The position numbers and the translations under genes are program-made. From positions 62,001 through 126,000 of the forward strand of contig JADFFQ010000001.1 in NCBI GenBank assembly GCA_022568135.1: 64,000 nt of DNA. The letters run 5' to 3'. The stretch comes from Planctomycetota bacterium (GTDB lineage Bacteria; Planctomycetota; Phycisphaerae; Phycisphaerales; SM1A02). The notes under the pieces were generated by a model. It saw only the letters and a program-made list of their open reading frames with translations. It searched no databases and had not been told where the DNA came from. Shown here in pieces: positions 16,170 through 35,463 of the stretch; within the stretch, counting starts at the first letter, position 1; each line of letters opens with the position of its first letter.

Positions 16170-16577
16170 ATGCCCAAGGCACGCCCCAAGCGCCGTCAGA
16201 AGAAGTATGCAAGCTCGTTGCTCGTCGATCTCTTAGGACTGCTTCGCAGCGACGCGCGCAGACGCATCCTGATCCAGCTGGCCGCAGGGCCCAAGGACGT
16301 AGCGACCCTGGCCGCGGAGATGAAGCTTTCGGCTTCAACCGTCAGGTACCATCTGGGGAGACTGCGGGACCGCCGCTTGGTGCACGTCAGGCGAGTCGCG
16401 AAGCGCTGCCTTTACCGGCACTCCCCCAACGTCAGTGCGATTGTGGGCCGCCAAAGGGTGATCTTGAGGGTGGCCACGCCCGATGGCAGCCAAGTGACGT
16501 TGATGACCCCTGCTCAGGTCGGCGGCCGCCAGGCGATGTACCAACAGACTGCGCGACCAGCCGGCCGATCGCCATAG
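16170..16577 (+). CDS. ArsR-like winged-helix regulator 1
   Basis: 135 aa. Residues ~18-85 form an ArsR winged helix: LLGLLRSDARRRILIQLAAG, then KDVATLAAEMKLSASTVRYHLGRLRDRRLVHVRR and the wing. The metal-binding cysteines of classical ArsR (CxC) are absent. The C-terminal ~45 residues (RVILRVATPDGSQVTLMTP) form a beta extension also seen in the second regulator at 17078-17485 (GDGGQVTIQLPL), so the two are paralogues. It is divergent from the type II secretion operon with the 29-bp palindrome between them. Confidence 0.8.
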   Translation: MPKARPKRRQKKYASSLLVDLLGLLRSDARRRILIQLAAGPKDVATLAAEMKLSASTVRYHLGRLRDRRLVHVRRVAKRCLYRHSPNVSAIVGRQRVILRVATPDGSQVTLMTPAQVGGRQAMYQQTARPAGRSP

Positions 16578-17077
16578 CGCCAACGGCCTGCGCCACCCTA
16601 GCCTCCATTGGGGACTCACCCTTTCTGCTCACACTGGAGCCCCGCCTCTCGCCTCTTACCTGCGGGCAGCGAAAGAACATGGGCGACGAATCTTCGCATA
16701 TCGCCCTTCATGCTGCGTATTCACCTATAGGAGCCAAGAGCAAGCTCGGCGTCGCCAGCTTGGGAACCAACCAGAGCTTCCACGATGAGGCCCAACGGGT
16801 TCCAGGTCGGCGGTGTCACACCGGTGTCACCCGCCGGGCCTGAACAGGTTCCAATCTTGATGTGGCATACGTATGTCATCACGTAGACCACCACCCAAAG
16901 GATCCCACCTGAGAGTGAATCAGGGGTGCATCATGTCATTGCCCCCGGCCCGAGAGCCTTTCGCGGCGCTGCCACTTCTACGCCGCGAAGCCATTGCCCA
17001 TCGGTAAGGCGGAGGGTGTCCAGCCCGAAGGAGTCGCATCGGAGTTCTGGACCCTCGTGAGATCGGAGGAAACGATC
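16578..17077. other. Intergenic region with palindromes, no gene seen
   Basis: No ORF here looks coding. It holds a near-palindrome with arms GGCGG/CCGCC around CACACCGGTGTCAC at about 16811-16837 and the palindrome at 16863-16878, both upstream of the second ArsR-like gene, and is probably its control region. Confidence 0.5.
16863..16878. promoter_or_regulatory. 16-bp palindrome upstream of second ArsR-like gene
   Basis: TGGCATACGTATGTCA contains the perfect 10-bp palindrome CATACGTATG with one mismatch in the outer arms. It lies about 200 bp before the second ArsR-like start and differs in sequence from the 29-bp operator. A regulator-binding site is plausible but no regulator can be assigned. 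Confidence 0.35.
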
Positions 17078-17485
17078 ATGTCCAAGGGGAGACAAGGAGC
17101 GGCGGTGTCCGCGAGGGCGTCGCCCTGCCGGTCGGTGTTCGAACTGTTGGGCCATCTTGGCCACGAGATTCGGTTGGAGATCGTCTGTAGCCTTGCCGAG
17201 TCGCCGAAGGACGTCTCGACCCTGGCAAACTGCCTGGAGCTGGATGTCACCACGATCAGTCACCACCTGCGCCGACTTTGGGAATGTGGACTGGTACAGG
17301 TGGAGGCGTTCAAGCAGAGGCACGTGTACCGGCTCGGCGATCGTCTCGACGTGACCAGCGGCCACGGCGTCTTGCACCTGAGCTCCGTGAGCGGTGATGG
17401 AGGTCAGGTCACGATCCAGCTGCCCTTGCGCCTTCTGCACGCATCCGCCGACACCACCGCGAAACCCGTGGGTGGGCGCCACTAG
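17078..17485 (+). CDS. ArsR-like winged-helix regulator 2
   Basis: The ATG at 17078 has a GGAGG Shine-Dalgarno (upstream in-frame starts lack one). The 135-aa protein has an ArsR-type winged helix at ~18-85: LLGHLGHEIRLEIVCSLAES, KDVSTLANCLELDVTTISHHLRRLWECGLV, then the wing. Its PKDVSTLA and recognition-helix layout match regulator 1 (PKDVATLA), and both end in a short GxQVT beta segment. No obvious metal site. The pair plus the two 29-bp palindromes suggest a local regulon covering the secretion operon and the RHS gene. Confidence 0.8.
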   Translation: MSKGRQGAAVSARASPCRSVFELLGHLGHEIRLEIVCSLAESPKDVSTLANCLELDVTTISHHLRRLWECGLVQVEAFKQRHVYRLGDRLDVTSGHGVLHLSSVSGDGGQVTIQLPLRLLHASADTTAKPVGGRH

Positions 17486-17573
17486 CACAACGAATCTCCT
17501 GCGGCCAGTACGCCCATCGGGCGCAAACCACGGGGCCTATCAAGGCCTCGGGAAGCGCGGTTGGTGGAGCCGC

Positions 17574-18326
17574 TCAGCCGTCTACGCCGATCGCCTGCTC
17601 CCAGGCCGCGGTGACCACCGCGAGGTTGGCATCGAGGTTGGCCTTCGCAGTGGCCACCAACGGATTGCCGCGGAGCTGCAGCAGTAGCGCCTGGGCCTCG
17701 GGATCGGGCTGTTGGCCCAGCTTCGCCGAGATCCGCTCGTTGGCCAGGGCGTCGCGCAGCTGGACCCATTGGGGCTCTGTGCGATCGACCGTGAGGAACT
17801 CGATGGGCAGGTCCCAGTTGCGGTTGCCGCGGATTGCGGCCAGAGTGTTTTGCTGGCTCGCGTTGAGACTTGCCGTCGCGCTGGTAAGGAGGCCGTTGAG
17901 CACACTTTGGCGCTGGGCCTCGGCCAGCGAAAGCTGCGTCATGGCCACGGCGTAGGCGTTGATCTGCTCTGAGGTCGCCTGTCCACTCTGGATGACCCGC
18001 TTGAGCCCATCGCACTGCCGCTTGAGGTCAGCGCAGGCGGCGTCGGCGAGCTCGATGGCCGCCGGGTTGGCGATCATGTCATCCAGGGAATCGCCGACGA
18101 CCGTAGCGACGGTCGATGGGGACCCGCCGGCGGCGGTCAGCTGGGCGGGACCCAGACCGATCCGGAGCATGGCTGCGGCGAGCTCATCGGCTGTGGGCGC
18201 CAGCAACAGCATCGACGCTCTGGCCTTCGCCTGATCGATCGAGTGGACATTGACAAAGAGGACAGCGATGACAATCCCAAGCACGATGATCGCGGGGTAG
18301 CGTCCTGTCTTGAAGACTCTGGCCAT
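17574..18326 (-). CDS. Exported or membrane-anchored helical protein, unknown function
   Basis: An AGGAG Shine-Dalgarno precedes the ATG at 18326. The 250-aa product has one N-terminal hydrophobic segment (YPAIIVLGIVIAVLFVNVHS) that is a membrane anchor or signal peptide, and is otherwise Ala/Gln/Leu-rich and helical with no cysteines in pairs apart from CADLKRQC near residue 92. The repeat-like stretches NAYAVAMTQLSLAEAQRQ and ASLNASQQNTLAAIRGNRN suggest a periplasmic helical bundle. It is divergent from the RHS gene, with the second 29-bp palindrome between them, so it may belong to the same regulon. No family recognised. Confidence 0.65.
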   Translation of the reverse strand: MARVFKTGRYPAIIVLGIVIAVLFVNVHSIDQAKARASMLLLAPTADELAAAMLRIGLGPAQLTAAGGSPSTVATVVGDSLDDMIANPAAIELADAACADLKRQCDGLKRVIQSGQATSEQINAYAVAMTQLSLAEAQRQSVLNGLLTSATASLNASQQNTLAAIRGNRNWDLPIEFLTVDRTEPQWVQLRDALANERISAKLGQQPDPEAQALLLQLRGNPLVATAKANLDANLAVVTAAWEQAIGVDG

Positions 18327-18442: not shown

Positions 18443-18536
18443 AGGGATTTGGTCTTGCACCAAGCTTCCAGTAATGAGATGAATCACACCCACCTCGTGC
18501 ATGGACTGCGGGGTGTATCTCGATTGGAGGTTGATC

Positions 18537-21500
18537 ATGGCTCGGCTCAACTCGTATGCGTTGGTGTACCGCTATGGTGTCCTGGCCGCGTTGCTGGCGA
18601 TGGTCGCTCCTCAGCGGCCGGCGTGGGCCGACCCGATCCTGGAGATCTACAACGACTCGCTGACGACCTATCTGCCAACGAGCAAGTCGAACATCCAGGA
18701 TATCCGCGCGCTGGTGGATCAGCGGGGCGTCAACATCGACGGCTCACTTCGTACCGCCGCCGGGCCACCAATGGCACTTGCCGGCAATCCATTTAGTGAG
18801 CCGTGGAATGAGAGCATGATCCTTTCCGGCGTGCGGCTGGACACGGGGACCGTCTCCATCACCGATGTGGATCTCGCCTTACCCGCCCCGAGCTTCTCCT
18901 GGGTGATCGGCCGAAGCTATAACGCCCGCCAGCACGATGGCACCGCCTATTTCGATAGCAACGGCTACCAAGGAAAGAACTGGTTCCAGCTCTCGCAGCC
19001 GGAGATCGTGCTATACGACGATGCCGACGACACCAAGGACATGGTCTACGTGGTTTACGGCGCGGATCGCTACATCGCGTTCAAGCGAAAGAATGCTACC
19101 AGCGACCAGTTCAAGGCGGTTAACGGCGTCGCCGGGGTCGTCGAGTTCCTGGACGGGTACGAGGATGGGCCCGTTGACGTATACATATACACCGACCAGC
19201 GTGGCTGGCAATACTTCTTCTTTGGGTTCGATGCAAATTACTTTCCGGTATCGGCCAAGGGCCAGTTCTGGAAGGTGGTCGCACCAGGCCCTGGTATCGA
19301 TGGCTACGTTGCGTACCTCGGTCTCGACGTGGATGCATATAACTCTGCGATTGCCGCATACTACGAAACTGACGGCCGGATCGGTAAGGTCTTCGACACG
19401 GCCGGTCGCCGGTACACCTACAGCTATGATAACAACAACCGGTTGATCGAGGTCCTCGCCGAGATGAACGAAACTGGGTTCCCCGATGTCGCCAAGGTAG
19501 AGTACGACTATTACGGCGACTTCGGCCAGACACAGTTAGTTGAAGACCAGTTCGGTTCGCCGGGGGATCTCCGCATGGTCAGGATCACCGAATTTCAGAC
19601 CGAAGATGATGTTACGGTCACACGGGTCAAGTACTACCGGTATTACGACAGCGGTCCCTATGACGTTAACGGGCACCGGGGCAACGCCCATCAGATTCAG
19701 TACATCTTCGAATTCGAGGGGACACGCAGGTTCGATTGGGATCAGGATGCGGAGCTCGAGAACTGGCCCAGTGTTCTACCCGAATATATGACGGAAACTG
19801 ATGAGACAGTTCTCAAACCCTATGCCAGCGCCTACTTCGAGTACGAGGACGATGACGAGGCAAACGGCGAGCATCGTCGCATAATCAAGGCTTGGTTCAA
19901 CGGGGCCTGCGGCTGTTCTGGCGCGGCCAACGGCACCCACGAGTACGAGTACCAAGAAAACGGCAGCTTTCCCGACCCGCCCAGCAGTGGGTACGACACA
20001 GCGTGGAAGAGCCGCACTATCGTCAAGCGACCGGACGGCTCCTACATCACCCAATACTTTGACGAGGTGGGGCAGCCGTTGAGCCGCGTTCTCACGGATG
20101 GTGATCCGAACGTAGGCAGTCCACAAACATGGGCGACCTATGTGGTTCGCGACGAGTCGGGGACGGAAGGCTTTATCACGAAGATCCACTCTCCAGCCAA
20201 CATCACCGGCTACACCCACAGCACGGGGTCTTTCGCGACTTCAACCACGGATGGTCTGGTGACCGTCTTTACGCGGGTTGCAACCGGGGATATGAAGGGC
20301 TTCGTGGAGGACCGCAAGCACCAGAAGGGCGCCGGCAACGCCTATCTAGACGTGACAAGCGGCTACACCTCCGCAACGAAGATAGTGGGCGACGTCACGT
20401 TGGTTCGTCCCTTGATCTCGTACACCTGGGAGTATACAGAGGAAACCACAGTTGAGGCCGGGCCGACTTCCGGCCCAACTGGCGCACATCAGGTCAAGGT
20501 CGACTACGACAGCTTCCATTCCGGCGTCGGAGTTCTTACGCCGAACGAGGTTACGGTGACTCATCCTGCCGTCAGCATCGACAACCACGGCTCGGGTTCC
20601 GTGACGACCTCCAAGGGTTACTTCAACGAGGAGGCCAAGATCGTCTTCGAAAAGATGACCGACGGCACCATCAACTACCGGCAATACGGTGACGACGGTA
20701 AGCCGGAGAAGACTATCGTGGACGCCGATACGGCGAGCACCGAAATTACCGACTGCGCGCCGACGGTACCGCCCTCATTCCAGAGCAGTGGAGCCCCGCT
20801 CCATCTGGTCACCTGCCTTACCTATAAAGGTGGCGGATCGATGGCCATGGGCGGCGGACCACCCGACCCGTGCGACTGTGACAACGACGCCGAAGGCGAC
20901 TCCAGCCAGACGGGTGACGGTCCTATGAACATCACCTACAAGTCCAAGCTCAAGGATGGGCGAACCGTAACGCTGGGGTTCTCAGATTGGGAGGAGGTTC
21001 TGTTTGCGAACGATAAGTACTACGGCCCCGTGACCTACACGGTCTCGAATCATTCAGGACAGGTCGAACTCCAGGGCGTCATTGCGTTGGCGGACAACGG
21101 CGGCGAGTACACATTAGCAGATGTGGCAATCTTTGTGGACGAGGCCGATGGTGACCCCCTCACTGCGATCGACGGCATCGGCACCGTCACCCAGGCGACG
21201 ACCTTCGTTTACGACCAAAGCGGCCAGCGGCTGGAAGAATCCCGGCTGTACTTTGCCATTCCTCTCTCCGGCGAGGGCATCGAAGGCAGCGAGTATGACG
21301 CCACGTTGTACGGCTATGACGACATGGGCAGGAGCATTCGCGTCAAGGATGCAACCGGCACCATTCGACGTATCGTCTACGACAAGCTTGGCCGCGTCAC
21401 CGAACAGCGGATCGGCACCAACGACTTCAGCTTCTCAGGCGGCGAGCCGGCCGGCCCCGACAACATGGTCAAGACCGTCGCCAAGGTGTACGACTCCGGC

Positions 21501-24500
21501 AACGACGGTGGCAACAGTTACCTGACCCAACAGACCCTCTTCGTCGAGGATGGCGCGCCCGGTCAGCGTGTGACGACTTACACCAACGACCTCCGCGGTC
21601 GAGTCATCGTGACCGTAGGTCCCGAGCCGCCGTTCGTCGTCGGCAGGTACGACAACCTCGGCCGAGTGATTGCCACTGGCGATTACAGCTCAAGTACTGG
21701 GCTGGACGAGGACACGGACCCGACTTTGACGACCAGTGCTAATCGCGTTGGCCTTACAGAGACGTTGTTCGACGAGATGGGGGGGGTTTACAAGGGCATC
21801 CGCTGGAAGATCAACCAGGCTAACGGCAACAAGGACGACAGCCTAGAGACACTCAATTGGTACGACGCGATGCGAAGGGTCATCAAGATCGACGGCTCGC
21901 ACCTCACCAAGACCTCCTACGACCGCCTGAGTCGCCCGACCCACCAATTCATCCTGGCCAGCGACAACGACACCGGCTACGGAGATGCGGACGATGTTGC
22001 CGGCGACATCGTGCTCCAGGAGACGCAGACCGTCTACGAATCCTCCAACAGCGACGACGTGGTCATGACCGCGGTCATCGACCGCTTCCATGACGACTAC
22101 GGCGCGGGCGAGTCGACCGGGGCGCTGGATACCAACGCCGACAACGACGACCTGAAATACACCGCCACCAATATAACGGGCCGCATCCAGATCATCGCCA
22201 ACTGGTACGACCGCTTCGAGCGGCTTACCGACACGGTGCGCTACGGCATGTACGACCCTGACGACGATGGGGACTTCGACACCTTCGATCGTAGCGGGCT
22301 GTCCACGCCGCCGGCACGAACCGATCCGATCATCCAAGACGGAAAGGCCCTCCTCAGCGAGTACGAGTTCTACGCCGATGGGACCCTGAAGTCCGTCACT
22401 GATCCCGAGGATCTTGAAACCCGCTTCGAGTATGACGCCGCCGCCCGGCAGACGAAGGTGATCAACAACTACTTTGACGGGACCCCCATCGTCGCGACCG
22501 ACCAGACCATCAAGTACGAGTACACGGACGGTCTGCGCACCAAGATGATCGCCGACCTGCCCGCCGGGGAGACCGACCAGCAGACGATCTACACCTTCGG
22601 CACCACCAAGGGCGTCTCCGCGGGCGACTCCAAGATCGCCACCGGGCACCTGCTGCAGAAGGTTCAGTACCCCGATTCCTCAGGCGGGACAGACGTCGTG
22701 ACCTTCGCCTACAACGCCCAGGTCCAGCAGATCTGGACCAAGGACCAGGAGGGCAACGTCACCGAGACCGACTACGATCACGCCGGCCGGCAGACGCACC
22801 GCCGCATCACGGGGCTCGCCACCGGCTTCGACGGAGCGATTCGCCGCATCAGCACCACCTACGACAACCTGGGCCGTCGCCAGCTTGTCGCCCAGCACGA
22901 CAAGGCCACCGTCGGCTCCGGCACCATCGTGGATGAGGTCAAGTTCACCTACGAGGACTGGGGCAACGTCTCCAAGTTCGAGCAGGACCACAACTCCGCC
23001 ATCGGCGGTAGCCTGCTCTACGACGTCGCCTACACCTACGAGAAGGCCACCAACGGCCGCAACACGATCCGCCGAACTGGAATCACCATGCCGGATGGCA
23101 ACGTCCTCACGTACCAATTCCGGGCGAACGATCTGCATGACGAGGAGGCCAGCCGGGTCACCATGATCCAAGAGGGACCTACATACCGTGTCCGCTACCA
23201 TTACAACGGCGTGGGACAGGTGGTGGGGACCCAATATCTGGAACCGCTTGTGATATGGAACCAGTTCGGCTCTTCCGGCAGCTACCCCGACCTGGACCGC
23301 TTCAACCGCATCACCTCCAGCCGCTGGACCAAGGACCTGGCCACGGACGTGGACTTCTACGACGTGGACATCACCTACGACCGCAACTCCAACATTACCC
23401 TGATCCAGGACAACGTTCACGCGGGCTTCGATGTGGACTATACCATCGACAACCTCAACCGCCTCACCCAGGCAGAGGAGGGCACCTGGAACAGCGGCAC
23501 CTCGCAAATCGACTCGACCACCCGCGACCAGATCTGGACCACCCTCAACCAGACCGGCAACTGGGACCTGGTCAAGCTCGATCTCAACGGCGATGGTGTC
23601 TTTACCGGTGCCGATGAGTACAACGACGACCGCACCCACAACGATGTCAACGAACTCACCGCCCGGGACACCGATGACGACGGCACGGACGACTTTACCC
23701 TCACCTCCGACAAGCTCGGCAACCTCACCGATGACGGCGAGCACTGGAAGTACACCTATGACGCGTTCGGCCGGCTGCGCAAGATCGACAAAATCGTCAG
23801 CGGGCTGAACCCGTTGGTGGCCGAGTACACCTACAACGGCCTGGGTCATCGCATCGGCTGGCACTACGATGTCGATGCGAATGGAACCGTGAAGGGCGAC
23901 GATCCCTGGTATCGTTTCGTCTACGATGAGCGCTGGCGGATCGTCGCCACGTTCCGCGCCAGCGACAGCTCACCCAAGGAGCAGTTCGTCTACCACAACG
24001 CCGGGCTGGACGGCTTCGGCGGCTCCAGCTACATCGACACCGTGGTCCTGCGCGACAAGGACGCCAACACCGCCTGGTCCACGGCCTCAGACGGCACCCT
24101 CGAGGAGCGCATCTACTACTGCCATAACTGGCGGGGCGATGTGGTGGCCCTGATCGACGACACCGCCGACCAGGTCGAGCAGGTGCGGTACTCATCCTAC
24201 GGCGTCCCCTTCGGGTTGCCCAAGGGCGATACCGATGGCGATGGCGATCTCGACACCACCGATGTCAATCAGATCAGGACGTGGGTCAATAGCGCACAGT
24301 ACGACGTGCGCGGCGATCTGGATCTCGACGGCGATGTGGACGGTACCGATCACACGAATGCCACCAACGCCTCGCCCGTCACCCTGGGCTGGGGTGTGCT
24401 CTCAGATGTGGGAAACCGTAAGGGCTACGCCGGCTACGAGCTCGATGACGCCATCGCCGGTAACTACCGCCTCTACCACGTCCGCAACCGCGTGCTGAAC

Positions 24501-25187
24501 TCCGACCTCGGCCGCTGGCTCACCCGCGATCCACTTGGCTATGTCGACGGCGCAAATCTGTACGAGTATGTCGGATCGAATCCTCTGGGCGCCGTTGACC
24601 CAATGGGCACCATCCCCCCGGAAGGCCCCTTCGGAACCGGAATCGGGGGCGGCCCCGGCCGCAGGCCGTTCCCCAGGAATCCCAGGCCGCCGCCAGGTGC
24701 AGGCCTCTGCGTAGCTGTACCTATGCCCGGACCTGCCCGCAGGCCGATCCCTGCTAACCCGAGACCAGCACCCGGCTCGGGGCTGCTGTACGCCACGCCC
24801 TTTGACACGACCGCAGACACAGGAGGCCCTTTGACGCCGGGCAGCACCCCCGAGGAGTGGCGGGATTTTGGTCAGTACTTGCTAGGCGTCTTGCAAGGCT
24901 ACTTCGAAGAGCCAGATCCCGGGATCCAGGGCCCTGGCGGCCTCCACGAATGGGTCTCGCCCGCAGGAGGAGCCATAAAGGGGTGCCTGGCCGCGGCAAA
25001 GTTTTTCGGAAGGGCAAAGAAGATTCGGGACATCGATTATATTGTGAGAAAGTACCGCATAACAGACCGGGCAATGCGAAGGAGGATACATGATGAGGCC
25101 CAAAGACGAAAGCTTGGCCGGAGGAGCCTCAGTCGGGAAGAGCTCGAGGAGATCGTTCGGGATCTCTACCCGCACTTGGTAGAATGA
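18537..25187 (+). CDS. Giant secreted RHS/YD-repeat protein with dockerin-like segment and variable C-terminus
   Basis: The ATG at 18537 has a GGAGG Shine-Dalgarno and opens a Sec signal peptide (MARLNSYALVYRYGV... RPAWA/DP). The ~2,216-aa protein has an N-terminal RHS entry region (PSFSWVIGRSYNARQ), then many YD repeats (for example GRRYTYSYDNNNRL, ETRFEYDAAARQTK). Near residues 1898-1945 is a dockerin-like calcium segment (DTDGDGDLDTTDVNQI ... GDLDLDGDVDGTDHTN) set into the RHS core, and near 1992-2023 the core ends with LGRWLTRDPLGYVDGANLYE and NPLGAVDPMG. The last ~193 residues differ: a Pro/Gly-rich linker, then a charged helical domain (YRITDRAMRRRIHDEAQRRK... SREELEEIVRDL) typical in position for a polymorphic toxin. 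The signal peptide and adjacent type II secretion operon suggest Sec plus type II export. Confidence 0.9.
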   Translation: MARLNSYALVYRYGVLAALLAMVAPQRPAWADPILEIYNDSLTTYLPTSKSNIQDIRALVDQRGVNIDGSLRTAAGPPMALAGNPFSEPWNESMILSGVRLDTGTVSITDVDLALPAPSFSWVIGRSYNARQHDGTAYFDSNGYQGKNWFQLSQPEIVLYDDADDTKDMVYVVYGADRYIAFKRKNATSDQFKAVNGVAGVVEFLDGYEDGPVDVYIYTDQRGWQYFFFGFDANYFPVSAKGQFWKVVAPGPGIDGYVAYLGLDVDAYNSAIAAYYETDGRIGKVFDTAGRRYTYSYDNNNRLIEVLAEMNETGFPDVAKVEYDYYGDFGQTQLVEDQFGSPGDLRMVRITEFQTEDDVTVTRVKYYRYYDSGPYDVNGHRGNAHQIQYIFEFEGTRRFDWDQDAELENWPSVLPEYMTETDETVLKPYASAYFEYEDDDEANGEHRRIIKAWFNGACGCSGAANGTHEYEYQENGSFPDPPSSGYDTAWKSRTIVKRPDGSYITQYFDEVGQPLSRVLTDGDPNVGSPQTWATYVVRDESGTEGFITKIHSPANITGYTHSTGSFATSTTDGLVTVFTRVATGDMKGFVEDRKHQKGAGNAYLDVTSGYTSATKIVGDVTLVRPLISYTWEYTEETTVEAGPTSGPTGAHQVKVDYDSFHSGVGVLTPNEVTVTHPAVSIDNHGSGSVTTSKGYFNEEAKIVFEKMTDGTINYRQYGDDGKPEKTIVDADTASTEITDCAPTVPPSFQSSGAPLHLVTCLTYKGGGSMAMGGGPPDPCDCDNDAEGDSSQTGDGPMNITYKSKLKDGRTVTLGFSDWEEVLFANDKYYGPVTYTVSNHSGQVELQGVIALADNGGEYTLADVAIFVDEADGDPLTAIDGIGTVTQATTFVYDQSGQRLEESRLYFAIPLSGEGIEGSEYDATLYGYDDMGRSIRVKDATGTIRRIVYDKLGRVTEQRIGTNDFSFSGGEPAGPDNMVKTVAKVYDSGNDGGNSYLTQQTLFVEDGAPGQRVTTYTNDLRGRVIVTVGPEPPFVVGRYDNLGRVIATGDYSSSTGLDEDTDPTLTTSANRVGLTETLFDEMGGVYKGIRWKINQANGNKDDSLETLNWYDAMRRVIKIDGSHLTKTSYDRLSRPTHQFILASDNDTGYGDADDVAGDIVLQETQTVYESSNSDDVVMTAVIDRFHDDYGAGESTGALDTNADNDDLKYTATNITGRIQIIANWYDRFERLTDTVRYGMYDPDDDGDFDTFDRSGLSTPPARTDPIIQDGKALLSEYEFYADGTLKSVTDPEDLETRFEYDAAARQTKVINNYFDGTPIVATDQTIKYEYTDGLRTKMIADLPAGETDQQTIYTFGTTKGVSAGDSKIATGHLLQKVQYPDSSGGTDVVTFAYNAQVQQIWTKDQEGNVTETDYDHAGRQTHRRITGLATGFDGAIRRISTTYDNLGRRQLVAQHDKATVGSGTIVDEVKFTYEDWGNVSKFEQDHNSAIGGSLLYDVAYTYEKATNGRNTIRRTGITMPDGNVLTYQFRANDLHDEEASRVTMIQEGPTYRVRYHYNGVGQVVGTQYLEPLVIWNQFGSSGSYPDLDRFNRITSSRWTKDLATDVDFYDVDITYDRNSNITLIQDNVHAGFDVDYTIDNLNRLTQAEEGTWNSGTSQIDSTTRDQIWTTLNQTGNWDLVKLDLNGDGVFTGADEYNDDRTHNDVNELTARDTDDDGTDDFTLTSDKLGNLTDDGEHWKYTYDAFGRLRKIDKIVSGLNPLVAEYTYNGLGHRIGWHYDVDANGTVKGDDPWYRFVYDERWRIVATFRASDSSPKEQFVYHNAGLDGFGGSSYIDTVVLRDKDANTAWSTASDGTLEERIYYCHNWRGDVVALIDDTADQVEQVRYSSYGVPFGLPKGDTDGDGDLDTTDVNQIRTWVNSAQYDVRGDLDLDGDVDGTDHTNATNASPVTLGWGVLSDVGNRKGYAGYELDDAIAGNYRLYHVRNRVLNSDLGRWLTRDPLGYVDGANLYEYVGSNPLGAVDPMGTIPPEGPFGTGIGGGPGRRPFPRNPRPPPGAGLCVAVPMPGPARRPIPANPRPAPGSGLLYATPFDTTADTGGPLTPGSTPEEWRDFGQYLLGVLQGYFEEPDPGIQGPGGLHEWVSPAGGAIKGCLAAAKFFGRAKKIRDIDYIVRKYRITDRAMRRRIHDEAQRRKLGRRSLSREELEEIVRDLYPHLVE

Positions 25188-25382
25188 TTGATTATGCAGG
25201 CACGTCAGTCCCGAAGGCTTCGGACGACCAAGCAAGGAGTACCCCTGCAACCCTACGGCATCGTGACGCTTTTCCGGAAGACAAGGCGGTATGCGTCATT
25301 CGCGTTCCCGACATTGAAGGGTCTCCGGGATTTTAGGGTAAGACCGTCTGGCGAAGTTGCGTGGCGAGGCTCGCCTCTGTAG
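25188..25382 (+). CDS. Doubtful small ORF after the RHS gene
   Basis: A TTG- or ATG-started 62-64 aa ORF begins right after the RHS stop. Another frame starting at the overlapping ATG (25184) gives a 50-aa product (MIDYAGTSVPKASDD...) with the 4-bp overlap typical of coupled genes. Neither resembles a known protein. One might be a coupled immunity gene, but there is no further support. Confidence 0.2.
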   Translation: MIMQARQSRRLRTTKQGVPLQPYGIVTLFRKTRRYASFAFPTLKGLRDFRVRPSGEVAWRGSPL

Positions 25383-25394
25383 GCAGAGAATCAA

Positions 25395-25946
25395 GTGCCC
25401 AGTAAGATGTTGTCGCCTAGTGATATACTTCAGCGCCGCATCGAAGAGGCACTAACGGATCTCGTTAGTTTGCCCATCTGGGGCACCTGTCGCGCGTTGA
25501 ACATGCAGATGTTTGATCTTGGCAAGTGCCGAACAACGGTCAACGCCAAGGGCAAACGAGTTGAAGTCAGCGAATACAGCCTGCACATTCAATGCCCATG
25601 GCGCATTGTCGGACCCGAGGGCATCATCGTCGGAAGCGAGGACCGGAACTATCCTGAAGACGAGGAGTCCGACTGGAGCGAGTTTGACCCCGACGGCCCG
25701 ACCCGTAGCGAAGCCAGAATATCCGGCTGGCTCGAGCAGCACGAAGAATCGCCTCTTGTCGTCGATTCAGTTGAGGCGAACCATGTCGGTGGCTTCAAGC
25801 TTTTCTTGAGCAAGGGCTTTGTCCTGGAGGTGTTTCCCGCTCATTCCCTTCGTGGCGAGACTTGTGATTATTGGCGCCTCATTCGTCCGTCCGAGGGGGC
25901 TTCGCACTTTGTGGTCACCGGACATGGCATCGAGGATGATGTCTAA
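25395..25946 (+). CDS. Hypothetical protein, candidate immunity to the RHS C-terminus
   Basis: 183 aa, soluble and acidic; GTG start at 25395 or ATG at 25407. It contains LPIWGTCRALNMQMFDLG, then EYSLHIQCPWRIVGPEGIIVG and a C-terminal EVFPAHSL...YWRLIRP. I recognise this as a family of uncharacterised small bacterial proteins with the LHIQCPWR core, often found as orphan genes in variable regions. Its position directly downstream of an RHS toxin-like C-terminus is where an immunity gene is expected. The immunity role is inference. Confidence 0.5.
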   Translation: MPSKMLSPSDILQRRIEEALTDLVSLPIWGTCRALNMQMFDLGKCRTTVNAKGKRVEVSEYSLHIQCPWRIVGPEGIIVGSEDRNYPEDEESDWSEFDPDGPTRSEARISGWLEQHEESPLVVDSVEANHVGGFKLFLSKGFVLEVFPAHSLRGETCDYWRLIRPSEGASHFVVTGHGIEDDV

Positions 25947-26247
25947 CCATCGCTATGAGCGTGGACGGGGAAGCGATCGGACGAGGCCAAATCGGGAGCA
26001 CCTTCCGAACTGCAATGCGTCGTGACGTCGATGGTGGGCTTCCCGTGTTGGCATCCTCGCGTTCGCCAGGTTCTTCGTGGTCGCCTTTGGATTCAATTCC
26101 CCAGTCAGCGGGCTTTGGAAAGCCGGCTTCGTGAAAATCCTAGGCGGGATCAGTTTCTCCGGGGTCTGGCTGCGTCTGGTCCGCGCAGGCTATGCCGACA
26201 GAGTGAGACTGGGCTACGACCAGAATCCCGAACGTGAGGGAACGCTC

Positions 26248-26802
26248 ATGCCGGCCTCAATAGCGAAACGGAGAGACACGGTGCAAGAGCTCCTGGCAGA
26301 TGAGAAATATAGCATCAGTACCTTTGAACGGCTCGTCTACGAGATGATCAAGGAAGAACTGCAGCCGTATGAAGGCCGGTCAGTTGATTCCTCTCGAACG
26401 AGGTTCTTGCTGATTCCTTCGAGGAAGAGTGTGCCTACGCGCATCATTTGCGAAGTACGACGTGTGGACCCGTCGTTGTTGGATCTGGACATAGTGTTTG
26501 GCGAAACGGGGCCTCGCCTCGATGCTGGTCCGCCTCCGAGTGTCATTCCGGAAAGTTGGGTACTCGAGTACCGCATTTGGGAACCGTACTGGCTCGACTA
26601 TCCCGACCCGAAGACTTACGCTGATCAACTGCGGCCGTTTCTGCGAGACTGGTTTGAAGGTCGGCTGACGCTTGTCACCACCTACGCCGGCACCAAGGCA
26701 TATTCCTGGATTCTGAAGCGCGGCGAGGAGGTGCTTGGAAAAAAGCGCCTTCGGATCTTCCCCTACTTCGCGAAGCGCCGCACAGTGAGTCAGCACACCT
26801 GA
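26248..26802 (+). CDS. Hypothetical soluble protein
   Basis: The ATG at 26248 (MPASIAKRRDTVQELLADEK) with a GAGGGA upstream is preferred over the in-frame start at 26077, whose extra 57 residues look non-coding. The 184-aa product has a helical N-terminus, a beta-rich centre (TRIICEVRRVDPSLLDLDIVFG) and a C-terminal DWFEGRLTLVTTYAGTKAYSWIL. No family recognised. It may be a second immunity-type gene or simply an island gene; the ~300-bp gap to the previous gene shows nothing else. Confidence 0.45.
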   Translation: MPASIAKRRDTVQELLADEKYSISTFERLVYEMIKEELQPYEGRSVDSSRTRFLLIPSRKSVPTRIICEVRRVDPSLLDLDIVFGETGPRLDAGPPPSVIPESWVLEYRIWEPYWLDYPDPKTYADQLRPFLRDWFEGRLTLVTTYAGTKAYSWILKRGEEVLGKKRLRIFPYFAKRRTVSQHT

Positions 26803-26882
26803 GCCCGAGCGCGCTTTGGCGCCGCTCCTTTGTGAAGATGCACCGTTTGGCCCGCGGGCTCTTCCTCGTACGGGTCCAAAAC

Positions 26883-27131
26883 TCAGACCAACTGAAAGTG
26901 ACACTTGATCAGCCGGTGGGAGGCAGTAGAGGTGGACTTCTCATCGACAGTGTCCGGCATCCATTGGGGGTAACAGAGTGGCCGATCCTGATCTTCCTCG
27001 TCGGTGTCGGTGTTGGCGGCAATGACTAGGTCGGGGCTCCAGGTCCAGACACGGACTTGTGTGGCGGAGTTCACCGACGGTACGGCCGCGCGGGCCATCG
27101 GATCCAGGTCGGCCCCCACCGGGTCGCGCAG
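26883..27131 (-). pseudogene. Decayed C-terminal coding fragment, copy A
   Basis: Read on the minus strand this gives a C-terminus with WTWSPDLVIAANTDTDEEDQ, then YPQWMPDTVDEKSTSTAS and a stop. The same protein sequence, with substitutions, is found at 39109-39345, where a TGA replaces the first TGG. Conservation of the reading frame between copies shows both come from a real gene whose N-terminus is missing. The stop codon abuts the GGGTCCAAAACTCAG motif that recurs in the island. Family unknown. Confidence 0.45.
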
Positions 27132-27545
27132 TACATGGGTTCGACCTGGAGGCCGTTCTCATGGGCGACGGGCAAGACCATTCAGGTCCGACGGGGCCGG
27201 GTTTGCCGGGCCGCGTGGCAGGGATGACCTGGAGCACCGCCGCTGCGTAGGCTCACCCATCGACCGTCCCAACCTGGCTTGGACGTGTGGGCCACGTGGC
27301 AATCCACGTGGAAGGGGGGCGCCAGTGGATTCGACCTGGACGTGCGCACGGACCTACGTGGGCTTGATCTGTACTGACAGCCCAGAATCCGCGGTAGCCG
27401 CACTTCGGCGGGGCGAAGGAGTCACCCACGTGGACCTGGATCGGATGGGTCGCTTGGGCCTGGGATGGCCACGTAGCGGTGATCGGGAATCGGAGCTACG
27501 CGACCGCCGAAACACGTGTCATAGTCGCGCGGGGGTGACACACCC
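27132..27545. other. Gene-free stretch with repeated CCACGTGG palindromes
   Basis: No credible coding frame. Three perfect 8-bp palindromes CCACGTGG lie at 27292-27299, 27304-27311 and 27426-27433; the first two are only 4 bases apart and can form a hairpin. Confidence 0.4.
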
Positions 27546-27708: not shown

Positions 27709-29685
27709 CTACTCGCCGCGACCGCTTTCGCGCCCGCTTCCCGGCGGCCGGCCGCGCCGCACCTCCGGCAGCTTCACGGCCACCGCCTCCGTCACCGCGG
27801 CGACCGGCCCGCCCACGATCGACGGCAGCACGCGCACCTCGATCTTGGCCTCGTGCTTCTCGCGATCGATCACGATCTGGTCAACGCACCGTCGCACCAC
27901 GGCCTGCCGTTGGTCCAGTGGTCCTTCGCGCAGTGACGGCTCAAGGCAGGCGACGAACCGTGCCGTTTCTGCCACGAGATCATGAACCTCCGCCTCCGTT
28001 AGCGCCAGGCGCTCCAGCGACTCGATCTGGGTCTCCAGTCGCTCGCGCTCTTTGTTCAGTTCTTCGAGCCGCTGATCGACCAGCTGGCGGTTCGTCGCCG
28101 TGATGTTGTCCAGCAGATTCCGCGTGGTTTTGTCGATGCGCTTGAGACGTGATTCCAGCTTCTTCTGTTGCCTCACGACTTGGTCGTGGTCCTCGTTGAT
28201 GTGGATTCCCACTGCCTCGGTGATCCGCGTCCTCGCGCCTTTGCCCGCGTATTGAGCGTAGAAGTCCACCAGCGTCTTGATCACCGCCTCCTCGATCGCG
28301 TCCTTGGGGACAGCGCCGAGGGTGCACATGCTCCGCCCGTGGCGAATGTAGCCGCCGCAGGCGTAGTTAAAGGTCCGCCGGCGTGATCCATTCTCGCCCC
28401 GATTGTTGCCGTAGCGCGTGTAGCCTTCGTAGCGACTCCCGCAGTTCGAGCAGACGCCAAGCCCGGAGAGCAGGAACTTTGCCCGCGGACCGGTCCAGCC
28501 GCCGATGCGCTCGCCGGCCGGCGCGCCGGTCCGGGGGTTGATCCCGCGCTGGAGTCTCGATGAAGGTTGCTTCTGGAGGCGTTGCTTGGCCGACTCCCAG
28601 ATGCGCCGACTCACGGTTGGCGGGTGGGCGTTCTCGACGACGAGCCAATCCGACTCGTCGTTCTGTTCCAGCCGCCGACCATGTATGCCCTTTCGTTCGA
28701 CCGCCCGTCCATCGACGATGCGGTAGAACCGCGCATCGGTCCGTCGGTTCCAGGCCATGTCGCCGGTGTAGGCGGGGTTGATCAGGATTCCACGAACCGA
28801 GGTCAGCGACCACTTTCCGCTGTAGTGCACTGCCCATTCGGGGCCTCTCGGCGGTGGAATGCCGTCTCGGTTCAAGGCGTCGGCAACGGCCTTGAAGCCG
28901 CGGCGCTCCTGGACGTACATCGTGAAGATCCGCTGGATCGTCTCCACCCGGCTCTTCTCGCTGGGGATCAGCTTACACCGGTCCTTGCGGGAGACGCTGA
29001 TCGACTCACCCCGTTCGAGCGTGCGGACCAGAATTCCCTTCTGATCGAACATCTGCTTGGTTCCGTCGCGCATGTAGCGGAGGATGAACAGGAACTGGCC
29101 CGACTGGCTCTCATAGCCCAGGTCGTAGCCGTAGGGCGGGGCGCCGCCCATCCACCAGCCTTCACCGTTGCCTGCGGCATCCCCGTTGGTCGCCTTGCTC
29201 ACCAACCCGCGAATGACCACCTTGGACAGGTCCTTGCTTTCCTCTCTGGCCTGCCATTGCTTGACGGGGCGAATCAGATCGTCGGTTCCATCGCCGGTGA
29301 AGTTCTCGCTGGTGTAGTGGACCTCGACGCCGTGGGTGCGAAGGACGTGGCGGTAATAGCCCGCCTCATCGTTGTCGACTCTGCCGAAGCGCTTGACGTC
29401 GTAGACGATGATCATGCCGAAGTCGCAGGTGGGGCGCTTGGCGTCGGCCATCATCGCCTGGAACGCGCGTCGCCCGACGGTGCTGGTGCCGCTGATCGCA
29501 TCGTCCACGTAGTAGCGCAGCAACCGCAGGCCGTGCTCATCGGCATACTTTTCGATGGCCCGCTTCTGATCGGGAATCGACTGCTCCTGGCGATCGGTTG
29601 ACCGCCGCACGTAGCCGACGGCCCGCACTGTCCTGGCGCGCACCTTGCCGCCGCGCGGGGCGTTGATGGTGTTGGCCCTGGCCAT
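27709..29685 (-). CDS. Large serine recombinase 1
   Basis: The start at 29685 has an AAGGAGG Shine-Dalgarno; the in-frame upstream extension is promoter region. The 658-aa protein has a resolvase domain (residues ~20-165: VGYVRRSTDRQEQSIPDQKR with the catalytic Ser after RR, DDAISGTSTVGRRAFQ and VYDVKRFGR), a recombinase domain (~190-330), a zinc ribbon (CSNCGSRYEGYTRYG... YACGGYIRHGRSMCTLG) and a C-terminal coiled coil (~500-580) followed by a basic tail. It catalyses integration or excision through a Ser-DNA intermediate. About 90% identical by eye to the copy at 40692-42665. Confidence 0.93.
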   Translation of the reverse strand: MARANTINAPRGGKVRARTVRAVGYVRRSTDRQEQSIPDQKRAIEKYADEHGLRLLRYYVDDAISGTSTVGRRAFQAMMADAKRPTCDFGMIIVYDVKRFGRVDNDEAGYYRHVLRTHGVEVHYTSENFTGDGTDDLIRPVKQWQAREESKDLSKVVIRGLVSKATNGDAAGNGEGWWMGGAPPYGYDLGYESQSGQFLFILRYMRDGTKQMFDQKGILVRTLERGESISVSRKDRCKLIPSEKSRVETIQRIFTMYVQERRGFKAVADALNRDGIPPPRGPEWAVHYSGKWSLTSVRGILINPAYTGDMAWNRRTDARFYRIVDGRAVERKGIHGRRLEQNDESDWLVVENAHPPTVSRRIWESAKQRLQKQPSSRLQRGINPRTGAPAGERIGGWTGPRAKFLLSGLGVCSNCGSRYEGYTRYGNNRGENGSRRRTFNYACGGYIRHGRSMCTLGAVPKDAIEEAVIKTLVDFYAQYAGKGARTRITEAVGIHINEDHDQVVRQQKKLESRLKRIDKTTRNLLDNITATNRQLVDQRLEELNKERERLETQIESLERLALTEAEVHDLVAETARFVACLEPSLREGPLDQRQAVVRRCVDQIVIDREKHEAKIEVRVLPSIVGGPVAAVTEAVAVKLPEVRRGRPPGSGRESGRGE

Positions 29686-29990
29686 GACTGGACCTCCTTC
29701 CGCCGCCCTGCGCGACATGTCGTCCGCCCAGGGGGGTAGGGGGTCATGGGGGCCTAAGGTGGGCCGAACATCAAGGCGATTGTGGGCGAATCCGGCGAGT
29801 TCTGGCCAGAATCTGGCCATCCGGGCCCAGAATCGGCCAATGCGGCCAACCTGCGCCCGGATGCCGATTCCTCGCCCTCGGGCCTTGCTGTCGGGGCCAC
29901 GTCGCGCATCATGCCAGCGGGTTCGCGCGAGCAGGTTGCCGCGATCACGTGCCCTGCAATGGCCGCCTTGGGCGTTGGAGAATTCCAGTG
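29686..29990. promoter_or_regulatory. Divergent control or att-like region, copy 1
   Basis: This ~305-bp stretch between the divergent recombinase and small gene is kept nearly unchanged in copy 2 (42666-42970), and its first part is also recognisable in the remnant at 34033-34170. It contains a run of related strings (TCTGGCCAGA, ATCTGGCCAT, GGGCCCAGA, ATCGGCCAAT) forming overlapping inverted repeats around 29804-29850. Such a block may bind the recombinase or the small protein, or hold the attachment site. Confidence 0.45.
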
Positions 29991-30428
29991 ATGTCAGACG
30001 CACAGCAATCTACGGACTCGTCGTCTGGACCGTCGGCAACCCAGCGTCTCAGCGCCGGCCATAGAAGCATTCGTGTTCCGCTACGAGTGATGCTCGACGT
30101 GCAGGATGAATTGACCGATCTGGCGGCGGTGCTCGGTTGTCTGACGGCGATACGGTCGCTTCTTCGCGTGATGGGCGAGGTTGTTGAGCCGGCGGAGGCC
30201 TTGGGCACCAAGCCCAGCGCGGATCGAATCGGAACTGCTGCTGCGGAGCTCTTTGAAGGATCGCTCGACGAATACCTGACCGATGCGGCATGGACATTGG
30301 ACCGCCAGACAGACGCGGAAGTTCTCGTCGACCTCGCCAGTGCCCCGGACACGATCACGACCTGCGTGCAATTGCGGCTGTACCGGCTCCATGCGCTGCT
30401 GAGGATGGCCTGCACATCTCAGAAATAA
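29991..30428 (+). CDS. Small protein paired with serine recombinase, copy 1
   Basis: 145 aa starting MSDAQQSTDSS, with GGAG 10 bases upstream. The N-terminus is Ser/Gln-rich and disordered, the rest helical (VMLDVQDELTDLAAVLGCL, EPAEALGTKPSADRIGTAAAELFEG, TITTCVQLRLYRLHALLRM). No known fold recognised. A homologue sits in the same divergent place in copy 2, so it is part of the mobile unit and may assist or direct recombination; that role is inference. Confidence 0.6.
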   Translation: MSDAQQSTDSSSGPSATQRLSAGHRSIRVPLRVMLDVQDELTDLAAVLGCLTAIRSLLRVMGEVVEPAEALGTKPSADRIGTAAAELFEGSLDEYLTDAAWTLDRQTDAEVLVDLASAPDTITTCVQLRLYRLHALLRMACTSQK

Positions 30429-30870: not shown

Positions 30871-33465
30871 ATGGCTAACGTTGACATTCTCCAGGAAATC
30901 TTAGATTGGTCGTCTACTCGGCCGCCGTGGCAGTGTGACGCGCTCCGGCGACTCGTTACCCGAGGCGAAATTGACGATGACGACGTCAATGACCTCACGA
31001 ACATTTGCAAGGCTCGTCACGGGTTGGCAGCCAAGCGCAAGCCCGAACCGCTCGAAGCGAAACACTTGCCAGAACCGGGAGCGGGCAGCGAACCAGTCTC
31101 CCTCACGTCGCTTACACATCACGAAGGCGTCAATGCGCTCGCGAGGGCCCAGACGATCGAGTTTGGACCTTCGTTGACGATTGTGTATGGGGCCAATGCC
31201 GCTGGGAAGTCCGGCTATACACGCATCCTCAAGCGAGCATGTCGAGCGCGTGGGGCTGAAGAGATCTTGGGAAACGTCGTGGCCGGAACCGCTCCCGGCC
31301 GTCCTTCATCCACAATCAAATTTGATGTTGGTGGGACGCCGAGTGAGCTTCTCTGGGATGATGACCAGGCGGGTAACAGCGACCTTGGCAGGGTCAGCGT
31401 GTTCGATCGGCATTGTGCGAGCGTCTACATCGCACAACAGACCGACGTTGCTTTCAGACCGCTCGGGCTTGACCTCTTCGATAAGCTCTCAGATGCGTGC
31501 GAAGCCGTTCGAAAAGCACTCGACAAGGAACGGAAAGAGCTTGCCGCAACGACGCTTGAATTCCCGAATGTGCCCGAGGGAACAAGGGTCCACGATCTGG
31601 TATCGCACGTGACTTCACTCACGGATCCGGAAGCCGTAAAGGAGCTGGCGTCGCTGTCCGAAGCCGAGATGGCGCATATGGAGGAGCTGCGAAAAAGGCT
31701 CCAGGATCTACAGAGTCATGATCCCGACAAGACCGGTCGTGCGCTGGAGCTTCGGGCGAAGCGTGTGGAAGCCTTGGCTGAAAAGATCGGAGCGGTTGCT
31801 GAGACGCTTTCCGACTCCGCGATCGCGGAGGTGTTCACGGCTCGCGACCGCATGATTGAGACTCGGCAGGCTGCCGAGCAGATGCGACGAGCCACATTCG
31901 AAGAGCAACCACTCCCGAATGGTGGCTCGGATGCATGGCGAGCGCTTTGGGCGGCTGCAGAGCGCTTCTCGACGGCTGAGGCATATCCAGATCAGCCTTT
32001 CCCGGTCACAGGTGAAGATTCGCGATGCGTCTTTTGCCAACAGGAACTGCAGAACGATGGCGCGGAACGGCTGCGACAGTTTCACGAATTCCTCAGCTCC
32101 GCGGTGCAGCGTGACTCCGACAAGGCGACGACATTGTTTCAAGGTCTGCACAAGCGGCTGGGTGATCTGGTCGTAGCGGACGACCCAACGACCCAGGCAT
32201 TGGAAGAACTCGAGATTGAGGATTCGACCTTGGCTGACACCGCCAAGGAATGCCTGGAGGCAGCTGAGGAAAGACGAGAAGCGGTGACAACGGCGCTCGA
32301 GGAGGACTTGCCATGTCCACCGAATCTGCCGGAGAAGCCGCTGGACTCACAGGTCTTGGCGGCTCAGGTTCAAACCCTAAGGGATCGCGCAGAAGAACTC
32401 AGGAAGGGAAGCCATCCGGAGGCGAAAGCCAAGTTCCAGGAGGAACTTCAGGAGCTTTACTCTCGGCGGTTGCTGGGCAGCCACCTGGCTGCTGTCCTTC
32501 AAGAAATCGAACGAAAGAAGAAGCTCGCTGCGTACCAGCTTTGCCTCGACGACACGACGACCACCGGAATCACACGGAAAGGCAGTGAGGTTACGAAACG
32601 AGCGGTAACTGAGCAGCTTGCCAAGAGCTTCAAACAAGAGCTCAGGTCCCTCGACTTTCGGCACATTGAGGTTGAAATGACGGCAGCGGGAGGCGCGCGC
32701 GGCGCGCTTTACCACAAGCTGCAACTCAAGCGAGCACCTGGCGTCTCTGTACCCAAGGTCGTGAGCGAGGGTGAGGCGCTCTGCCTTTCAATCGCGTCGT
32801 TCTTCGCAGAACTCAGCACGACGCCAGATCGGTCGACGATTCTCTTCGACGACCCGGTGTCGTCTCTCGACCATACATGGCGCGGGAACGTCGCTCGGCG
32901 GTTGGTACTCGAATCGCAATCTCGGCAGGTTGTGGTTTTCACGCACGACATAGTGTTCCTGCTCACCCTCATGGAGCACGCGAGAGATAATGACGTCGAC
33001 TTGACACACCAGTACTTGCGGAGAGACAGGACGGGAGCTGGTCTATGCGCCAAAGAGCTGCCCTGGGAAGCCATGCCTGTCAGCAAGCGGATCGGGCACT
33101 TGAGAGCGCTACGGCAGGATGCCGAGAAGCTGCACCGCACGGGGGATCAGCAAGAGTACGAACGCGACGCCATCAGAATATATGACCTCCTGCGTAAGGC
33201 CTGGGAGCGGGCGGTTGAAGAGGTCCTCTTGTACGGTATCGTGGAACGCTACCGCAACAGTGTCCAGACCCAGAGGTCGAAGTACTTGGCCGATATCACC
33301 GACGCTGACTGTAGGGCTCTTGATGCTGGAATGACAAAGACCTCGAAGTGGCTCCACGATCAGGCACCCGCCGAGAGCGCGCCCGTCCCCGATCCGAGCG
33401 AGCTTCAGGATGACATCAACGCGCTGGACGACTGGGTCAAGGGCATCCGTAAACGGCGTAAGTGA
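30871..33465 (+). CDS. AAA_13/RloC-like ABC-type ATPase with CxxC hook, probable defence protein
   Basis: 864 aa. The N-terminal ~95 residues (DILQEILDWSSTRPPWQCDA) are a conserved leader of this family. Walker A is IVYGANAAGKSGYTRIL (~residue 110), followed by a long coiled coil (~210-600) carrying a Rad50-like hook CVFC near residue 389, then Walker B/D-loop STILFDDPVSSLDHTWRG and a switch His (VVFTHDIVFLL). The C-terminal ~130 residues (RIYDLLRKAWERAVEEVLLYGIV... WLHDQAP) may be an effector region. Among known proteins this plan is closest to AAA_13 members such as the PrrC/RloC anticodon nucleases, though I cannot confirm the nuclease triad. The island context supports an anti-phage role. 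Confidence 0.8.
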   Translation: MANVDILQEILDWSSTRPPWQCDALRRLVTRGEIDDDDVNDLTNICKARHGLAAKRKPEPLEAKHLPEPGAGSEPVSLTSLTHHEGVNALARAQTIEFGPSLTIVYGANAAGKSGYTRILKRACRARGAEEILGNVVAGTAPGRPSSTIKFDVGGTPSELLWDDDQAGNSDLGRVSVFDRHCASVYIAQQTDVAFRPLGLDLFDKLSDACEAVRKALDKERKELAATTLEFPNVPEGTRVHDLVSHVTSLTDPEAVKELASLSEAEMAHMEELRKRLQDLQSHDPDKTGRALELRAKRVEALAEKIGAVAETLSDSAIAEVFTARDRMIETRQAAEQMRRATFEEQPLPNGGSDAWRALWAAAERFSTAEAYPDQPFPVTGEDSRCVFCQQELQNDGAERLRQFHEFLSSAVQRDSDKATTLFQGLHKRLGDLVVADDPTTQALEELEIEDSTLADTAKECLEAAEERREAVTTALEEDLPCPPNLPEKPLDSQVLAAQVQTLRDRAEELRKGSHPEAKAKFQEELQELYSRRLLGSHLAAVLQEIERKKKLAAYQLCLDDTTTTGITRKGSEVTKRAVTEQLAKSFKQELRSLDFRHIEVEMTAAGGARGALYHKLQLKRAPGVSVPKVVSEGEALCLSIASFFAELSTTPDRSTILFDDPVSSLDHTWRGNVARRLVLESQSRQVVVFTHDIVFLLTLMEHARDNDVDLTHQYLRRDRTGAGLCAKELPWEAMPVSKRIGHLRALRQDAEKLHRTGDQQEYERDAIRIYDLLRKAWERAVEEVLLYGIVERYRNSVQTQRSKYLADITDADCRALDAGMTKTSKWLHDQAPAESAPVPDPSELQDDINALDDWVKGIRKRRK

Positions 33466-34608: not shown

Positions 34609-35463
34609 GTGTCGGGTAAGTCGACTATCAGAAGCGTTCGGAAAGCGCCAAGAAACCAGCTCAACGACCTTAGTGCCAAGGAGTGGATTCCCGAGACGGT
34701 ATCCGTCTGGACGCAGCGAGGGCTTGGCAAGGGGCACGAGCACGCGCAGATTGAGCGCGAGCACCCCGCACCATTCTCATTTCAGGATGTGGCGCGGCTC
34801 GTCCGCTTCTTCACTAAGCAGGGGGAGTTGGTCCTTGATCCATTCGTGGGAGTGGGGTCAACCCTGAAGGCCGCCGCCCTCGAAGGCCGTCGCGGTATCG
34901 GCATCGAACTGAACAAGCGATACGCAGACCTTGCGCGGAAGAGGTTGCGGTTGGAGGTAGAAGAGTCGCTGTTAGCCTCTGCGAAGCAAAGGGTGATTCG
35001 CGGAGATGCTGCGAAAGTGCTACGTAAGCTGCCAAAGGAGGAAGTCAAACTCGTCGTTACAAGTCCCCCCTATTGGAACATCCTCCATAAGAAGGACCAC
35101 AAGGCTGAGCAGGAGAGGCTGAGTAACGGACTGGACACGCACTACGGCGACGATCCGGCAGACCTCGGCAACATCGAGCTCTACGATGAGTTTCTACATC
35201 GGCTAGCGGACGTCTTGACGCTCACCCATCCGCTACTTGTGGCGAAGGGGCATCTGTGCATTGTTGTCGGCGATTTCCGACACAAGTCGCGCTATTTCAT
35301 GTTCCACGCCGATCTCTCGCGCGAGATGGAGTCGCGAGGCTTCGTCTTGAAGGGGCTGACCGTGCTTTATCAGAGGCACAAGAGAATATTTCCCTACGGA
35401 TACCCATACTCCTTTGTTCCGAATCTACATCATCAGTACATTATCATTCTGGCGAAGCAATGA
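34609..35463 (+). CDS. DNA methyltransferase 1 of a restriction-modification cassette
   Basis: The GTG at 34609 is used because AGGAGG lies just upstream; the nearby ATG is out of frame and soon stops. The 284-aa protein has the AdoMet-binding motif LVLDPFVGVGSTLKAA (~residue 75) before the catalytic motif TSPPYW (~152), i.e. order I then IV, and GIELNKRYADLARKRL. TSPPYW occurs in N4-cytosine and some N6-adenine enzymes. The gap between its motifs suggests the target-recognition part is at the C-terminus. Stop overlaps the next start by ATGA. Confidence 0.85.
   Translation: MSGKSTIRSVRKAPRNQLNDLSAKEWIPETVSVWTQRGLGKGHEHAQIEREHPAPFSFQDVARLVRFFTKQGELVLDPFVGVGSTLKAAALEGRRGIGIELNKRYADLARKRLRLEVEESLLASAKQRVIRGDAAKVLRKLPKEEVKLVVTSPPYWNILHKKDHKAEQERLSNGLDTHYGDDPADLGNIELYDEFLHRLADVLTLTHPLLVAKGHLCIVVGDFRHKSRYFMFHADLSREMESRGFVLKGLTVLYQRHKRIFPYGYPYSFVPNLHHQYIIILAKQ

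What the first reader, a model, noticed from the sequence alone, without database searches (positions are those of the whole stretch)
24604..26802. Variable RHS C-terminus followed by candidate immunity genes
After the conserved DPMG end of the RHS core come ~193 residues with a Pro/Gly linker and a charged helical domain, then an LHIQCPWR-family gene and another orphan gene. The layout fits a polymorphic toxin with downstream immunity, but in a planctomycete protein with a signal peptide and dockerin insert rather than a VgrG/T6SS context.
Basis: partly seen in the sequence, partly recalled or inferred. Interest (0 to 1): 0.6.

Follow-up and report, generated by a model that had tools for sequence, protein, structure and literature searches.

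The report
RHS-tip toxin with its immunity gene
A secreted giant bacterial protein ends in a small swappable helical domain that recurs, together with the gene just downstream, in distantly related bacteria, so the two are most likely a toxin and its antidote from a family that Pfam and NCBIfam do not list.

Summary
RHS ORF 18501-25187 (start probably 18537) keeps its core to DPMG (24597-24608). The tail after it is specific to this genome: in the closest orthologue found (85% core identity, same upstream genes) everything from 24583 to ~27209 is replaced, and 40 tails of related RHS proteins are mostly unrelated to one another. The last ~58 residues are a three-helix domain. A profile built without the window sequence scores it above all 50,000 shuffles and above the other 39 tails. 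That domain family sits directly upstream of a homologue or distant relative of gene 25395-25946 (the 'LHIQCPWR' gene) in Dorea, another Lachnospiraceae, a Eubacteriales MAG, Caballeronia, a planctomycete-phylum RHS gene, and two stand-alone bicistrons between rpoB and rpoC in the window's class. The toxin/immunity reading is therefore well supported for 25395-25946, though no activity is shown. It is not supported for 26248-26802, whose only detected relative is an unlinked paralogue. No Pfam or NCBIfam model matched the domain or its partner; some partner relatives match DUF6188 weakly. TssC/VipB was not detected in the genome. The signal peptide was judged by eye; the dockerin insert is a sub-threshold match. 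A new toxin/immunity pair within the known polymorphic-toxin kind.

The parts
18537..25187 (+). RHS protein (listed ORF begins 18501; ATG 18537 with GGAGG upstream is the likelier start)
18537..18629 (+). putative Sec signal peptide MARLNSYALVYRYGVLAALLAMVAPQRPAWA
   Evidence: read from sequence; no predictor was run
24225..24374 (+). dockerin-like insert with two D-x-D-x-D-G calcium-loop motifs inside the RHS core
   Evidence: read from sequence; Pfam Dockerin_1 E=9.4, below cut-off
24528..24608 (+). end of RHS-associated core, DPLG...DPMG (position of the aspartyl self-cleavage motif in Rhs/Tc proteins, from general knowledge)
   Evidence: TIGR03696 E=1.2e-12; DNA similarity to the G003 orthologue stops at 24583
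24609..24812 (+). Pro/Gly/Arg-rich linker
   Evidence: sequence; 71% GC for 24603-24812
25011..25187 (+). C-terminal helical toxin-candidate domain (RAKKIRDIDYIVRKYRITDRAMRRRIHDEAQRRKLGRRSLSREELEEIVRDLYPHLVE)
   Evidence: profile score above all of 50,000 shuffles; model
25395..25946 (+). immunity-gene candidate (LHIQCPWR family; GTG 25395 or ATG 25407)
26248..26802 (+). orphan gene, role unknown, not shown to be immunity; has an unlinked paralogue beside the FtsY-like gene at G000:C52

Best explanation
The gene encodes an exported RHS protein carrying a swappable C-terminal toxin. Inferred route: Sec export, enclosure of the tip by the RHS shell, self-cleavage at the DPxG end, and release of the ~58-residue helical domain into a neighbouring cell. 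The product of 25395-25946 has no evident signal peptide, so it would stay in the cytoplasm and neutralise the domain there, protecting the producer and its kin. Shown here: sharp tip variability, homology of the tip domain to a portable domain family, and recurrent adjacency of that family to homologues of 25395-25946. Inferred: toxicity, cleavage, delivery, binding and protection. The molecular target is unknown; a cytosolic target such as a nucleic acid or a core enzyme is my guess (about 0.3 for a nuclease).
For: Tip variability: the G003 orthologue is 85% identical in the core and 92% identical in upstream DNA, but 24583-27209 is replaced; among 40 tails only 6 of 780 pairs are similar. 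Homology of the domain: a bridge profile that leaves the window out gives 12.1 bits, 0 of 50,000 shuffles reach it, and the next natural tail scores -0.2; pairwise 39% identity over 54 aa with the L161 protein. Adjacency: Dorea RHS (CT ends 7935, partner starts 7950), Caballeronia (4-nt overlap), Eubacteriales MAG, Lachnospiraceae RHS, planctomycete-phylum RHS (distant partner, P=1.7e-5), and two rpoB/rpoC bicistrons (partners P about 4e-6). In A. larrymoorei the same domain is the C-terminus of a PAAR-like protein, the place where T6SS effectors carry toxins. In Dorea a second cassette has a different tail and a different next gene. The partner gene was found in only 3 of 301 genomes of the order, and in this one it is next to the RHS tip. 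Tail, partner gene and 26248-26802 share a lower GC (55-58%) than the core (60%) and upstream DNA (63%).
Against: No activity or binding is shown. The gap between RHS stop and partner start is 207 bp, against 30 bp or less (or overlap) in most relatives. The domain is short for an enzyme. With the first 7-sequence profile alone the match was marginal: 4.9 bits, 1 of 20,000 shuffles higher, and in a re-run one of 372 six-frame decoys scored as high. The intermediates that made the match firm were found with a profile that included the window sequence, although they also score strongly without it. In A. larrymoorei the domain has a different neighbour. Most partner-family loci are orphans without the domain nearby. 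In L166 and L167 a similar motif follows the RHS core but is not C-terminal.
Confidence: 0.8

Rival explanations
1. The immunity gene is 26248-26802, or both neighbours are immunity genes (cognate plus one left from an earlier tip).
For: It lies in the same replaced block and has the same low GC; arrays of leftover immunity genes are known in polymorphic-toxin loci.
Against: Its only relative found is an unlinked paralogue beside an FtsY-like gene with no RHS nearby; no match in 150 relatives or in plasmids; no co-occurrence with the domain family.
Confidence: 0.1
2. The tip is a variable non-toxic domain, for example surface binding or signalling, and the neighbour is an unrelated insertion.
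For: Many sibling tips are Cys-rich and look extracellular, so not every tip in this group need be a cytosolic toxin.
Against: The neighbour's family recurs directly downstream of the same domain in several phyla; the domain ends a PAAR-like protein; this tip is Cys-poor, unlike most siblings.
Confidence: 0.12
3. The locus is a decayed or silent cassette: the domain and partner are real family members but no longer act as a pair.
For: The 207-bp gap, the weak start context of 25395 and a divergent, Arg-rich domain with an insertion before the last helix.
Against: Both frames are open; the partner keeps the conserved family residues and gives a confident model (pLDDT 92).
Confidence: 0.15
4. 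The two-gene unit is primarily a chromosomal toxin-antitoxin-like or regulatory module that RHS genes have captured.
For: Tightly coupled stand-alone pairs between rpoB and rpoC in two genomes.
Against: Only two genomes seen; in most other loci the domain is the end of a longer protein, often an RHS or PAAR-like carrier.
Confidence: 0.2

Closest known systems
Rhs polymorphic toxin/immunity systems (PMC3482391; PMC3150448)
   Same: RHS repeats and core, DPxG boundary, variable C-terminal domain, downstream gene of a family that pairs with that domain, tandem core-fragment cassettes in relatives
   Different: No TssC/VipB detected in the genome; apparent Sec signal; toxin and immunity domains match no Pfam or NCBIfam model
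Dorea sp. D27 RHS protein and its downstream gene (L117)
   Same: RHS core, same C-terminal domain family, same downstream partner family 14 bp away
   Different: Bacillota; different pre-toxin region; second tandem cassette with another tail and gene
Agrobacterium larrymoorei PAAR-like protein (L122)
   Same: Same C-terminal domain family as the last ~55 residues
   Different: T6SS setting beside VgrG; the next gene is a different family
DUF6188 (PF19686)
   Same: A partner relative (L161/L165) matches at E=3.7e-4, sub-threshold; two of 24 family members match weakly (best E=0.077)
   Different: The window's own protein shows no match; DUF6188 has no described function and no paper in the library names it

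Membership tests
Rhs-type polymorphic toxin system | RHS repeats and Rhs-associated core ending in DPxG | tested here: met
Rhs-type polymorphic toxin system | C-terminal domain after the core varies sharply among close homologues | tested here: met
Rhs-type polymorphic toxin system | gene downstream belongs to a family linked to that C-terminal domain elsewhere | tested here: met
   for 25395-25946; not for 26248-26802
Rhs-type polymorphic toxin system | export signal | tested here: inconclusive
   putative Sec signal peptide read by eye; no predictor available
Rhs-type polymorphic toxin system | toxicity of the tip and neutralisation by the neighbour | not testable with these tools
   needs expression and co-expression
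T6SS Rhs effector | T6SS present in the genome | tested here: not met
   no PF05943 match in G000, 93% complete; the control genome E. coli rings
known toxin family in Pfam/NCBIfam | profile match of the tail | tested here: not met
   0 families up to E=10
known immunity family in Pfam/NCBIfam | profile match of 25395-25946 | tested here: not met
   0 families
DUF6188 superfamily | match to PF19686 | tested here: inconclusive
   relatives only, below cut-off
dockerin type I | match to PF00404 | tested here: inconclusive
   E=9.4, 7 bits against 22.9

The most novel reading that the evidence does not exclude
The RHS tip and its neighbour belong to an undescribed, widespread two-gene family (a ~55-residue helical domain plus a WR-motif partner) that lives both as delivered toxin/immunity cassettes (RHS and possibly PAAR carriers) and as a resident coupled pair between rpoB and rpoC, where it could act on or report on transcription.
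Probability: 0.3. Interest if true: 0.75.

Novelty: new member of a known kind. Interest (0 to 1): 0.5.

Why it matters
It ties a variable RHS tip in an apparently Sec-exported protein of a genome without detectable T6SS to an immunity-gene candidate by linkage seen in several phyla, and defines a toxin/immunity pair that Pfam and NCBIfam do not model. The same pair standing alone between rpoB and rpoC raises a testable question about how delivered toxins and resident modules exchange parts.

Tried and rejected
Direct searches with the tail found nothing: Pfam and NCBIfam, PDB (chance only), genome contigs, plasmids, and 343 phylum genomes (hits inspected were unrelated). Direct BLAST of the window tail against the Dorea tail failed; homology came only through intermediates. 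The partner's fold has no significant PDB match (best E=0.087); the tail model is low in confidence over the linker and its fold search is uninformative. PADLOC shows no hit for either neighbour. Papers: none for DUF6188, none joining dockerin, RHS repeat and planctomycetes. A T6SS reading was rejected.

Full report
Observation. The RHS ORF at 18501-25187 (start probably ATG 18537, with GGAGG just upstream) has RHS repeats and an Rhs-associated core (E=1.2e-12) ending at DPMG, residues 2033-2036. After it come 192 residues: a Pro/Gly/Arg-rich linker (71% GC) and a charged helical end. Two genes follow on the same strand, 25395-25946 and 26248-26802, then serine-recombinase sequence. No Pfam or NCBIfam family matches the tail or 25395-25946, and the only match listed for 26248-26802, DUF2497, is far below its cut-off.

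Variability. The closest orthologue found, in the same genus (G003), is 85% identical over the core; DNA upstream of the gene is 92% identical (window 13523-18306), and recombinase-associated DNA downstream also matches. Between these, window 24583-27209 has almost no counterpart. The recombinase element occurs in two copies in the window, so the downstream match may be a separate insertion; the upstream match is the firm one. I compared 40 tails from RHS genes of related genomes: only 6 of 780 pairs are similar, and most are rich in cysteine while this one is not.

The neighbour family. The 25395-25946 protein is found in 27 loci of the genome collection, in Bacillota, Rhizobiaceae and scattered MAGs, with the motif LHIQCPWR. 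Most copies stand alone. In Dorea sp. D27 it lies 14 bp after an RHS gene whose last residues are a short helical domain. Searching with that domain found it in Caballeronia, where an independent search with the window's neighbour had found its homologue in the adjoining gene, and in A. larrymoorei as the end of a PAAR-like protein, where the next gene is a different family. The genome of the Eubacteriales MAG also carries the domain directly upstream of the family gene, and another Lachnospiraceae RHS gene has the pair. A planctomycete-phylum RHS gene ends in the domain and is followed by a distant partner relative (hhalign P=1.7e-5).

Link to the window's tip. A first profile of seven sequences gave the window tail 4.9 bits: 1 of 20,000 shuffles higher, best of 40 natural tails; a six-frame decoy tied it in one re-run, so this was suggestive only. 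A search of 298 genomes of the class with a profile that included the window sequence found close intermediates, which also score strongly against the profile without the window. With those intermediates and without the window sequence, the window tail scores 12.1 bits, 0 of 50,000 shuffles reach it and the next natural tail scores -0.2; one intermediate (L161) is 39% identical over 54 aa. The match covers the last residues and the predicted three-helix region. The invariant residue in the eight-sequence alignment is the His of the LHD/IHD motif.

An unexpected setting. Those two intermediates, L164 and L165, are small stand-alone genes followed at once by a partner relative (a 4-nt overlap in L165), between genes matching RNA polymerase beta and beta-prime. 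Partner relatives align to the family profile with P about 4e-6; one matches DUF6188 weakly.

Mechanism. Shown: tip swapping, domain homology, repeated adjacency. Inferred from Rhs biology: export, self-cleavage at DPxG, delivery, toxicity, and neutralisation by the cytosolic partner. The partner model is confident (pLDDT 92) but matches no solved fold. The target is unknown. TssC/VipB was not detected in the genome. The second gene has only an unlinked paralogue and is not assigned a role.

Noticed in passing
L164 4050-4798 and L165 4280-5073 (both - strand): Coupled bicistron of a ~55-residue domain gene and a partner relative, lying between genes matching RNA_pol_Rpb2 and Rpb1 domains
   Followed up: partly
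RHS tails of related genomes, e.g. L037, L039, L041, L042, L048: Most tips are Cys-rich (often 7-12% Cys) and mutually unrelated; L042 carries an HExxH-like motif
   Followed up: partly
L040, L043, L045, L055, L056: Tandem RHS core fragments, each with its own tail, as in displaced-tip arrays
   Followed up: partly
window 27709-30003 and 40692-42983: Two copies of a large serine recombinase with shared flanks bracketing an island with a PDC-S06-like ATPase (30871-33465) and DNA methyltransferases (34609-36236)
   Followed up: partly
L117 8991-12484: Dorea locus carries further RHS core fragments, a second tail and a different downstream gene
   Followed up: no
L092 221-5492: In Peribacillus the partner-family gene lies in a run of small genes including HEAT-repeat and CPCC-type proteins, resembling an immunity array
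   Followed up: no
L166 373-1257 and L167 217-1200: A similar helical motif directly after the RHS core but followed by further sequence, so not always C-terminal
   Followed up: partly
L087 (G000:C52:58000-73000): Paralogue of 26248-26802 (55% identity) beside an FtsY-like gene
   Followed up: partly
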